Source: Leptolyngbya sp. PCC 6406 (GTDB taxonomy: Bacteria; Cyanobacteriota; Cyanobacteriia; Phormidesmidales; Phormidesmidaceae). Taken from it: a stretch of 64,000 bases of DNA. A program made the position numbers and the translations under genes. The stretch's first letter is position 1; every line of letters begins with the position of its first letter. The DNA lies in assembly GCF_000332095.2 (NCBI RefSeq), contig NZ_KI913949.1:780211-844210 (forward strand), written 5' to 3'. The notes below the pieces were generated by a model, which was given only the letters and a program-made list of their open reading frames with translations, was not told where the DNA came from and did no database searches. Below, one piece after another: positions 28,260 to 32,065 of the stretch.

Positions 28260-28356
28260 CCAGTTCCGAACATTCTTGTCCACACTAGCGCTACCTGCGC
28301 CGCCCAAGGCGCTACAGTAAGAACGGTCACACTGCTCACTCCGAGCCCCTTTGGTC

Positions 28357-28878
28357 ATGCCCAGAACCCAGCGAAACGATAACTTCATCGACAAAACCTT
28401 CACGGTGATGGCAGACATGATCCTCACAATGCTGCCCACCAACCAGAAGGCTAAGGAAGCTTTTGCCTATTACCGAGATGGTATGTCTGCCCAAGCCGAT
28501 GGGGAATATGCCGAGGCCATGCAGAACTACGAAGAGGCGCTGCAACTAGAGGAAGATCCCTACGACAAGAGCTATGTGCTCTATAACATGGGGCTGATCC
28601 ATGCCAGCAATGGTGAACATGAAAAGGCCATGGCCCGGTATCAAGAAGCCCTAGAACTCAACCCCCGCATGTGCCAAGCCCTGAATAACATGGCGGTAAT
28701 CTACCACTATCAGGGGGAACAGGCGGAAGCATCCGGAGACCATCAAGCGGCGGAAGACCTCTTTGACGAAGCAGCTCGGTACTGGATGGAGGCCATCAAC
28801 GTTGCTCCCAACAACTATATCGAAGCTCAAAACTGGCTCAAAAACACAGGCCGCATGAAGGTAGATACCTACTTCTAG
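28357..28878 (+). CDS. ycf3: Photosystem I assembly protein Ycf3
   Basis: A 173-residue TPR chaperone attached to the stromal or cytoplasmic face of the thylakoid, needed to build photosystem I by guiding PsaA and PsaB. Family start [20 protein letters not shown]. Three TPR units: [20 protein letters not shown] (about 35-65), [20 protein letters not shown] (70-100), and [20 protein letters not shown] (107-140). The end is [19 protein letters not shown] choose ATG 28357 rather than the TTG two codons earlier because it matches the family start. Monocistronic by spacing. Confidence 0.97.
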
Positions 28879-29406: not shown

Positions 29407-29973
29407 CTAGGCCACCCCAACCACAGCAACAACCCCAATCAATCCGCCAATGCCTAGACCCAGAATACAGACTGCCGCCAAGATCAACGAAGTTTGCAAG
29501 CGATTAAAGAAAGACAACAGCCGATCTCCTGTCTCAGCACCGATAATGCCCCCCACAGCAGCGGTCACGACCGCCATCAGGCTCATTTTGACCACTTCGG
29601 CAGCCGCTTCCCTCGGCACAATCTCATCCAAATTGTCAGTGCCGACATAGTTTAGGGAAATAGCCAAGGCCACCACGATAGCCCCAGTTCCCAGAATGGA
29701 CAGCAGCGCCATAAGATTAGAACTCCACCAACCAAATCGCGACAAGGCTCTAGGACCTGCTAAGGCTAAGGCTTGGGCAATCACCCCACCCAGGGCAAGA
29801 TTCCAAATCCAGTAGGGGGCAGGAAAGGAGGCCATGATCAGCCCCGCCACGGCGTAGAGAAAGGCGGTGGCGAAAATCCAGCCCCAAGGAAGACTGTCAG
29901 GAAGCGCTAATTGAGATTGAAAACGCTGCCTCAACGACAAACGTCGGCGGTGGCGTCGGGGAGTAGAAGCCAT
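29407..29973 (-). CDS. Hypothetical membrane protein
   Basis: A 188-residue protein I do not recognise. A basic N-terminus (STPRRHRRRLSLRQRFQSQL) is followed by four hydrophobic segments: about 32-50, 55-75, 85-110 and 140-185. The last is Gly/Ala-rich with a GGIIGAETGDRL turn between helices. The start at ATG 29973 is preferred; a longer open frame to 30039 lacks a good ribosome binding site. It stands alone between convergent gatC and the divergent ZIP-like gene. Similar proteins seem to occur in cyanobacteria, but no role can be given. Confidence 0.6.
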   Translation of the reverse strand: MASTPRRHRRRLSLRQRFQSQLALPDSLPWGWIFATAFLYAVAGLIMASFPAPYWIWNLALGGVIAQALALAGPRALSRFGWWSSNLMALLSILGTGAIVVALAISLNYVGTDNLDEIVPREAAAEVVKMSLMAVVTAAVGGIIGAETGDRLLSFFNRLQTSLILAAVCILGLGIGGLIGVVAVVGVA

Positions 29974-30242
29974 ATAAATCGATGGAAACAACTCGCAAGC
30001 TTGTAGCCATTGGGCAATGTCCCCAGGGCATCTACCCAAACGGAAACAAAACCCATAATCTTAGTTAAGAGTATACCCATCAGCACCACAATGTCTGGAT
30101 GGGTGACACCCATACCCCCATCAGCAACCTCAAAATCAAGCCCCATGAGAGGGATCATGGCTTGCTACTGCAATGGAAAAACTTGGCTGAAAGGCCCACT
30201 CCACCAAGCGAATTCCAGGTTTTCATCGTATGCTGATGCATT

Positions 30243-31520
30243 ATGCCATCTATATCCCTAGACGCACTATTACAAGGAATCTTAGGGGCCTCCAGTCTGT
30301 TGATTGGTGCTCTGGTTGGAGTCTATTGGCAGCCTGGACGGGTTTTTTCTGCCGCCATTATGGCCTTTGGCAGTGGTACCTTGCTGTCAGCGATCGCCTT
30401 TGACATTACCCAACCCGTTTATGAGTCCAGTGGGTTTTGGCCCATTTTGACAGGGTTTGCCATGGGGGGAACTTTGTTCACCTTGGTGATCAAATACATC
30501 GACGACCACGGCGGCTTTATCCGCCACCCCTCTGCCTCCCGTCGCTTTCTGTACCAAAATCGTCAGGAAGAAACTTCAGAGGTTCTAAACCGCCTGACCC
30601 ATGTAGAGATGCTCCACAATCTCTCTCCCTCGGAGGTTCAGGCCATCATTCCCCTGCTCAAGCCGTTGAATGTAGAACCGGGTACCCTGCTCTGCCAAGA
30701 AGGGGCTCCCGGTGACGCCATGTTCGTCATCGTTGACGGGGAGGCAGAGATCTACAAGGGTGAGCAGTTTATGGCACTGCTGGGGGCAGGAGAAATGTTT
30801 GGTGAAATGGCGCTGTTGACCGGGGAAGAACGCTCCGCCACGGTGATTGCCCGGACACCCATGGCACTTTATGAGCTGGACAAGATGGATTTCGACGCGA
30901 TGCTCACGCGCTCCCCCCACTTGGCCAGTGGCCTTAGTCGAATCCTGGCGCGGCGGCTGCGGGAAACCACTCAAAATCGGGCAAAACTGCGGGAAGAATC
31001 GGACGAGCACTGGCGTCAAAGGGTTCTGGACAGCGTTGAGGTAGATTTTCCCCTCTCGGAGCAGCAAATTCAGCAGTTAGCCAAAAGCTCTGCCCCAATA
31101 GCCATCCTCGTGGGTACGCTGATCGACAATATCCCAGAAGCGCTGGTTATCGGTCTGAATGCGGGCATTGGCCACATCAGCAGTTCCTTTCTGATGGCCG
31201 TCTTTATCTCGAATTTTCCCGAAGCTCTGTCCAGTTCCATTGGCATGAAACAAGCGGGTACCTCGGCCCAGCGCATCATCACCCTCTGGGGCGGAGTTGT
31301 CCTCCTCAGTGGCCTCATTGCCATGGTGGGGAGTGCCCTGACCACCTACGCCAATCCCTGGGTAGTGGGCGCGACTCAATCCCTAGCGGGAGGCGCAATT
31401 TTGGCTATGCTCTCTAGCACAATGATGCCCGAAGCCTATGAACTTGGGGGTGGGTCAGTCACCTTCTCCACCATCGCAGGTTTCCTCGTCGGCTTCTGGA
31501 TGGTGACCCTGTCCCTCTAA
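30243..31520 (+). CDS. ZIP-like metal transporter with an inserted cyclic-nucleotide-binding domain
   Basis: A 425-residue membrane protein. Three hydrophobic segments (about 7-25, 36-55, 66-86) are followed by a soluble loop that contains a complete CRP/cNMP domain (about 115-240: EPGTLLCQEGAPGDAMFVIV, then the binding cassette FGEMALLTGEERSATV with its arginine). The chain then returns to the membrane: IDNIPEALVIGL near 295 corresponds to ZIP helix 4 (HNxPEG) and FISNFPEALSSS near 323 to helix 5, followed by three more helices. Metal-ligand histidines are replaced by Asp and Ser. The simplest reading is a divalent-cation or related carrier gated or tuned by a nucleotide (inference). It stands alone. 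Confidence 0.8.
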   Translation: MPSISLDALLQGILGASSLLIGALVGVYWQPGRVFSAAIMAFGSGTLLSAIAFDITQPVYESSGFWPILTGFAMGGTLFTLVIKYIDDHGGFIRHPSASRRFLYQNRQEETSEVLNRLTHVEMLHNLSPSEVQAIIPLLKPLNVEPGTLLCQEGAPGDAMFVIVDGEAEIYKGEQFMALLGAGEMFGEMALLTGEERSATVIARTPMALYELDKMDFDAMLTRSPHLASGLSRILARRLRETTQNRAKLREESDEHWRQRVLDSVEVDFPLSEQQIQQLAKSSAPIAILVGTLIDNIPEALVIGLNAGIGHISSSFLMAVFISNFPEALSSSIGMKQAGTSAQRIITLWGGVVLLSGLIAMVGSALTTYANPWVVGATQSLAGGAILAMLSSTMMPEAYELGGGSVTFSTIAGFLVGFWMVTLSL

Positions 31521-31609: not shown

Positions 31610-32065
31610 TTACGCTAGACCAAACTCCCTCAAAGCAGGCAAAAAGTTATGGTTTTCGTGGCCAGGGCGGCTGAGTTTGAGCAAGGCAAAGCGCTGGAGG
31701 GGAGATAGAGCCTGCCATTGGGCAGCGCTCAGGGTGATTCCTAGCGTCTCAGCTTGGGCTTGGACGGCGTTAGGTAGATCGGACCTCAGCCAAGGTGGCT
31801 CAGGATCCAGGAGCAAGTCCTGGGCGGCGGTGCCGTCATAGTGAATGACTAACCCCTGAAGATAGTCCCGATAGGACTGGATCGAATCTCCTTCGCCGCA
31901 GGGCAAATCCACCAGCGATCGCCGTTCTGCTGCCGTGAACTGATGCCAATGGTGCAGCTTCAGCTTTACGCCGCAGGTATCGAGCTTAAACCGCACCCGC
32001 ATGGGAATGCAGCGCAGGCTCTGGACAAAATCTGCCTCAAATTGAAAGAAGGGGGATGCGGTCAT
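31610..32065 (-). CDS. Nitrate reductase-associated protein
   Basis: A 151-residue soluble protein of the nitrate-reductase-associated family. The name comes from gene neighbourhood; a molecular role is not proven. Diagnostic segments: FQFEADFVQSLRCIPMRVRF (6-25), KLDTCGVKLKLHHWHQF (about 27-43) and the closing LSPLQRFALLKLSRPGHENH. No narB or nrt genes are in the window, though ntcA lies 11 kb away. The gene is on the same strand as the saccharopine-dehydrogenase-like gene, 58 bp downstream of it, so they may share a transcript. Confidence 0.85.
   Translation of the reverse strand: MTASPFFQFEADFVQSLRCIPMRVRFKLDTCGVKLKLHHWHQFTAAERRSLVDLPCGEGDSIQSYRDYLQGLVIHYDGTAAQDLLLDPEPPWLRSDLPNAVQAQAETLGITLSAAQWQALSPLQRFALLKLSRPGHENHNFLPALREFGLA

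What the first reader, a model, noticed from the sequence alone, without database searches (positions are those of the whole stretch)
30243..31520. ZIP-like transporter with a cyclic-nucleotide domain in its central loop
Three membrane segments, then a complete CRP-type domain with its phosphate cassette FGEMALLTGEERSATV, then the ZIP-type helices 4 and 5 (IDNIPEALVIGL, FISNFPEALSSS). The arrangement suggests a carrier directly regulated by cAMP, cGMP or another small ligand. ZIP metal-ligand histidines are replaced by Asp and Ser, so the cargo may not be zinc. I know of no described example of this build.
Basis: partly seen in the sequence, partly recalled or inferred. Interest (0 to 1): 0.82.

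Follow-up and report, generated by a model that had tools for sequence, protein, structure and literature searches.

The report
ZIP carrier with cyclic-nucleotide sensor loop
A cyanobacterial membrane protein built like a ZIP metal carrier has a complete cyclic-nucleotide sensor inserted in the cytoplasmic loop that in other ZIPs regulates uptake, which suggests ion transport switched directly by cAMP or cGMP; the build is widely conserved, but no one has measured what it carries or what it senses.

Summary
The ORF at 30243-31520 (425 aa) is one intact gene: ZIP helices 1-3, a complete cyclic-nucleotide-binding domain (CNBD), then ZIP helices 4-8. The fusion is conserved: 53 of 390 genomes of the class carry it, and distant fused relatives occur in Spirochaetes and Chloroflexi. 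All 49 single-CNBD sequences examined keep the Gly, Glu and Arg of the phosphate cassette, which resembles that of the cAMP-gated channel MloK1. Unfused relatives align end to end with BbZIP, and the predicted fold of one matches only BbZIP. The His-to-Asp/Ser change is real but is a trait of this ZIP branch, shared by unfused relatives; the carboxylates of metal site M1 remain, the M2 and exit ligands are mostly lost.

Most likely it is an elevator-type divalent-metal carrier gated by cAMP or cGMP. Gating is inferred from the insertion point, the loop L(3,4) that joins static and moving domains and already regulates BbZIP. Ligand, cargo and sign of regulation are untested. A second branch has two CNBDs, both without the cassette Arg. 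CNBD-gated carriers (SLC9C1) and CNBD-MFS fusions are known, so this is a new variant of a known kind. The Synechocystis relative may be slr0593, catalogued as 'cAMP binding membrane protein'.

The parts
30243..31520 (+). ZIP-CNBD fusion gene, 425 aa
30249..30326 (+). helix TM1 (residues 3-28)
   Evidence: AlphaFold model
30339..30431 (+). helix TM2 (33-63), invariant M40, G43, G45; acidic D54
30438..30506 (+). helix TM3 (66-88)
30528..30596 (+). linker helix TM3-CNBD (96-118), with basic residues that fit a cytoplasmic place
30597..30971 (+). cyclic-nucleotide-binding domain (119-243): N-terminal helices, beta roll, cassette, B and C helices
   Evidence: Pfam PF00027; model; Foldseek to PKA, HCN, MloK1, SthK, CRP-type domains
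30798..30845 (+). phosphate-binding cassette FGEMALLTGEERSATV (186-201); G187, E188, R197 invariant in 49 of 49
30972..31091 (+). variable linker CNBD-TM4 (244-283), low model confidence
31092..31169 (+). helix TM4 (284-309) with D295-N-I-P-E299 (BbZIP H177-N178-x-x-E181)
31182..31253 (+). helix TM5 (314-337) with S323-N324-F-P-E327 (BbZIP Q207-D208-x-x-E211)
31266..31349 (+). helix TM6 (342-369); S356 stands where BbZIP has M2 ligand E240
31356..31442 (+). helix TM7 and motif T393-M-M-P-E-A-Y-E400
31452..31514 (+). helix TM8 (404-424)

Best explanation
It is a divalent-metal carrier of the ZIP fold, in a branch with an Asp-based metal site, whose cytoplasmic loop between helices 3 and 4 has been replaced by a working CNBD. 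Shown: one continuous gene, ZIP ancestry, an intact cNMP cassette under strong selection, the insertion point, and class III cyclases in the same genome. Inferred: it works as a dimeric elevator like BbZIP; cAMP or cGMP binding moves the C-helix of the CNBD, and because the CNBD ties scaffold helix 3 to moving helix 4 this eases or blocks the sliding of the transport domain. The metal (Mn, Fe, Mg or another hard cation, less likely Zn), the sign of regulation and the nucleotide are open.
For: Domain hits. The profile of unfused relatives matches BbZIP end to end, E 2.8e-12, and the fold of one matches only BbZIP chains below E 0.001, TM (query) 0.66-0.73. The CNBD is 38% identical to MloK1's over 108 residues, cassette FGEMALLTGEERSATV vs FGEMALISGEPRSATV. 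G187, E188 and R197 invariant in 49 of 49 single-CNBD members; D295, E299, E327 invariant in all 81 sequences. Basic residues lie on the predicted cytoplasmic side. 25 class III cyclase hits in this genome. In BbZIP the same loop L(3,4) senses zinc and restrains uptake (PMC10256678), and Domain I slides as an elevator against Domain II, with helix 4 in I and helices 3 and 7 in II (PMC9873690).
Against: No ligand, cargo or transport data. BbZIP's M2 and exit ligands are mostly not kept, so transport competence is not guaranteed. Linker 244-283 is poorly modelled and poorly conserved, which weakens a precise rigid coupling. The model of P0001 itself gave only CNBD matches among the 50 shown. A sister branch has lost the cassette Arg.
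Confidence: 0.62

Rival explanations
1. A membrane sensor rather than a carrier: the ZIP part binds metal but no longer transports, and reports metal and nucleotide state to partners.
For: M2 and exit-gate ligands largely replaced.
Against: M1 carboxylates D295, E299, E327 and the TM-x-PE motif are invariant, also in unfused relatives without any sensor domain; no conserved partner gene outside close relatives.
Confidence: 0.15
2. The CNBD is structural or binds a different ligand; transport is not under cAMP/cGMP control.
For: In the double-CNBD branch both cassettes have His in place of Arg in all 7 sequences, yet the domains persist; many Crp-type domains bind other ligands (own knowledge).
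Against: In the single-CNBD branch, to which the window belongs, Gly, Glu and Arg never vary in 49 sequences.
Confidence: 0.18
3. Annotation or assembly artefact joining two genes.
For: None found.
Against: Same continuous frame in dozens of independent genomes, and the insert splits one fold.
Confidence: 0.01

Closest known systems
BbZIP (Bordetella bronchiseptica ZIP; PDB 5tsa, 8ght)
   Same: Eight-helix ZIP fold, PE motifs in TM4 and TM5, M1 carboxylates, regulatory cytoplasmic loop L(3,4)
   Different: No CNBD; H177, Q207, D208, E240, H275, E276 are D, S, N, S, S, T in the window protein; about 24% identity over the aligned part
MloK1 (Mesorhizobium cyclic-nucleotide-gated K+ channel)
   Same: CNBD 38% identical, near-identical cassette
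   Different: CNBD is C-terminal to a channel, not inside a carrier loop
SLC9C1 sperm Na+/H+ exchanger
   Same: A carrier gated by a CNBD (PMC6052114)
   Different: Different carrier family, and it also has a voltage sensor
CNBD-MFS fusions
   Same: Bacterial carrier fused to a CNBD, mentioned in PMC10710835
   Different: Different carrier family; the review says fused domains in MFS are usually C-terminal
Synechocystis slr0593, 'cAMP binding membrane protein'
   Same: Name fits (PMC3516471); Synechocystis salina has a 53% identical relative (L048)
   Different: Orthology not tested: the PCC 6803 sequence was not at hand
ZIP8/ZIP14
   Same: A ZIP M1 histidine replaced by an acidic residue, proposed to widen metal range (PMC12753238)
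   Different: Glu in TM5 there, Asp in TM4 here; human proteins

Membership tests
ZIP (SLC39) family | Eight-helix ZIP fold | tested here: met
   Unfused relatives: profile to BbZIP E 2.8e-12 over full length, fold match only BbZIP. For P0001 itself: Zip Pfam E 4.9e-8, helix pattern, hhalign of A1 over TM4-7 E 4.6e-5, probability 69%
ZIP (SLC39) family | Pfam Zip curated cut-off | tested here: not met
   33.0 bits against 35.1; a remote branch interrupted by an insert, so this is a matter of sensitivity rather than of a missing feature
ZIP (SLC39) family | M1 metal ligands (H177, E181, Q207, E211 in BbZIP) | tested here: inconclusive
   E181 and E211 kept; H177 is D295, Q207 is S323
ZIP (SLC39) family | M2 ligands (N178, D208, E240) | tested here: not met
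   N296 is Asn in 36 of 49 single-CNBD members; D208 is N324, E240 is S356. The papers read call M1 the primary transport site in BbZIP, so loss of M2 does not exclude the family
ZIP (SLC39) family | Divalent metal transport | not testable with these tools
   needs uptake assays
Cyclic-nucleotide-binding domain | Beta roll with A, B, C helices | tested here: met
Cyclic-nucleotide-binding domain | Phosphate cassette with Glu and Arg | tested here: met
   G187, E188, R197 in 49 of 49
Cyclic-nucleotide-binding domain | Binding of cAMP or cGMP | not testable with these tools
   needs binding assays

The most novel reading that the evidence does not exclude
A previously undescribed class of ZIP carriers under direct second-messenger control: cAMP or cGMP opens or locks a hard-metal (Mn, Fe or Mg) elevator through a domain inserted between its scaffold and moving parts.
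Probability: 0.45. Interest if true: 0.8.

Novelty: new variant of a known kind. Interest (0 to 1): 0.62.

Why it matters
It would be a ZIP carrier directly gated by a cyclic nucleotide, linking cAMP signalling in cyanobacteria to metal supply. It also gives an experimental handle: the sensor sits exactly where BbZIP has its built-in zinc sensor, so the coupling of loop L(3,4) to the elevator can be tested by adding a soluble ligand.

Tried and rejected
Artefact or chance fusion: rejected by the relatives. Asp/Ser as a novelty of the fusion: rejected, unfused relatives share it. Conserved partner genes: only local synteny in close relatives; the HEAT-repeat gene (by eye) downstream in Crocosphaera and the small divergent membrane gene upstream are not general. 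Promoter and terminator scan: no excess over shuffles. Rfam: nothing near the gene. Literature searches for ZIP + CNBD found no description; one with a too-short term failed. cAMP versus cGMP could not be told from the cassette: RSAT occurs both in MloK1 and in the cGMP-dependent kinases. The first fold search showed only CNBD hits, so an unfused relative was modelled instead.

Full report
Observation. The window holds an intact 425-codon gene at 30243-31520, + strand; the opposite strand is not open. Pfam finds cNMP_binding (143-223, E 3.8e-21) and Zip (260-421, E 4.9e-8, slightly below the curated cut-off). The window lies in a 5.78-Mb, nearly complete genome. This is the only Pfam Zip hit in that genome, which also has 25 hits to class III nucleotide cyclases (not all need be active adenylate cyclases).

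Conservation. A scan of GTDB species genomes gave about 50 full-length cyanobacterial relatives at 53-87% identity, among them Leptolyngbya, Nodosilinea, Coleofasciculus, Symploca, Crocosphaera, Pseudanabaena and Synechocystis salina, plus Spirochaetes (36-37%) and Chloroflexi (30-31%) with the same build. In 390 genomes of the class, helices 4-8 as query gave 53 close matches (E at most 1.3e-43) in five families, 52 of them in open frames of 427-536 codons, the size of the single-CNBD form; 7 more genomes have frames of 611-644 codons, and at least 11 have frames of 247-301 codons at E 1e-25 to 1e-31 (counted from its list). Reading examples showed what these are: the long ones have two CNBDs, the short ones none.

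Evolution. On a tree of the membrane part alone (81 sequences, quick method, insert columns left out), CNBD number needs only 3 changes for its three states (shuffled mean 27.9). Single and double forms lie together, with one Chloroflexi sequence (L058) without a CNBD nested inside. One fusion with a later duplication and a loss would explain this. The root is a midpoint, support is SH-aLRT only and some branches are long, so one origin is likely, not proven.

The sensor. AlphaFold (mean pLDDT 76.7, pTM 0.60) shows helices TM1-TM3, a full CNBD with N-terminal helices, beta roll, cassette helix 188-193, B helix and C helix, then TM4-TM8. The Foldseek matches shown are CNBDs of PKA, MloK1, HCN, SthK and CRP-type regulators. 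In 49 single-CNBD sequences the Gly, Glu and Arg of the cassette never vary. In the 7 double-CNBD sequences both cassettes have His where Arg stands (read by eye from the translations; my pattern failed to print them), so that branch may have lost or changed its ligand.

The carrier. A profile of unfused relatives matches BbZIP over its length (E 2.8e-12). The model of one of them, from Rubrobacteraceae (pTM 0.74), finds only BbZIP chains below E 0.001. Through these alignments BbZIP H177/E181 fall on D295/E299, Q207/D208/E211 on S323/N324/E327, E240 on S356, H275/E276 on S392/T393 (counted along the printed alignment; BbZIP roles from PMC9873690). D295, E299, N324, E327, T393 and E397 are invariant in all 81 sequences, fused or not. 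The metal site is therefore probably a single M1-like site of three carboxylates. Carboxylates favour harder cations (general chemistry), and in ZIP8/ZIP14 an acidic residue for an M1 histidine is proposed to widen the metal range (PMC12753238). Cargo remains a guess.

Mechanism. In BbZIP the cytoplasmic loop L(3,4) folds back and, on binding zinc, restrains uptake (PMC10256678). BbZIP is an elevator whose Domain I slides against Domain II, with helix 4 in the moving part and helix 3 in the scaffold. The CNBD replaces just this loop, and basic residues on the predicted cytoplasmic side place it where cAMP is. Ligand-driven movement of its C-helix could thus pull on or free helix 4. This is inference: linker 244-283 is variable (37% identity against 55% for the CNBD and 64% for TM4-8 in diverged cyanobacterial members) and poorly modelled.

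Known work. No paper on a ZIP with a CNBD was found in the open library; most subscription papers are not held. Synechocystis slr0593 is listed as 'cAMP binding membrane protein' and falls, with its antisense RNA, in an iron-shortage time course (PMC3516471; first two values -1.32 and -1.35 in that table). That it is the orthologue is a guess from its name, not tested. CNBD-gated carriers exist (SLC9C1, PMC6052114), and MFS-CNBD fusions are mentioned in a review (PMC10710835). Hence: new variant of a known kind.

Noticed in passing
L095:658-2487, L139-L144: Sister branch of about 609 aa with two CNBDs in the same loop; both cassettes have His in place of the phosphate-binding Arg in all 7 sequences.
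   Followed up: partly
L058:2790-3846: Chloroflexi member nested among fused relatives but without the CNBD: a possible loss.
   Followed up: no
window 29407-30039 (-): Small membrane protein gene, divergent from the ZIP-CNBD gene, found beside it in 22 of the loci examined, close relatives only; function unknown.
   Followed up: partly
window 28351-28878 (+): TPR protein resembling photosystem I assembly factor Ycf3 (by eye; TPR by Pfam).
   Followed up: no
window 31610-32065 (-): Conserved nitrate reductase-associated protein just downstream, opposite strand (Pfam).
   Followed up: no
L140:441-848 (-): A second, separate 136-codon frame matching ZIP helices lies next to the double-CNBD gene of G248, perhaps a partial duplicate.
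   Followed up: no
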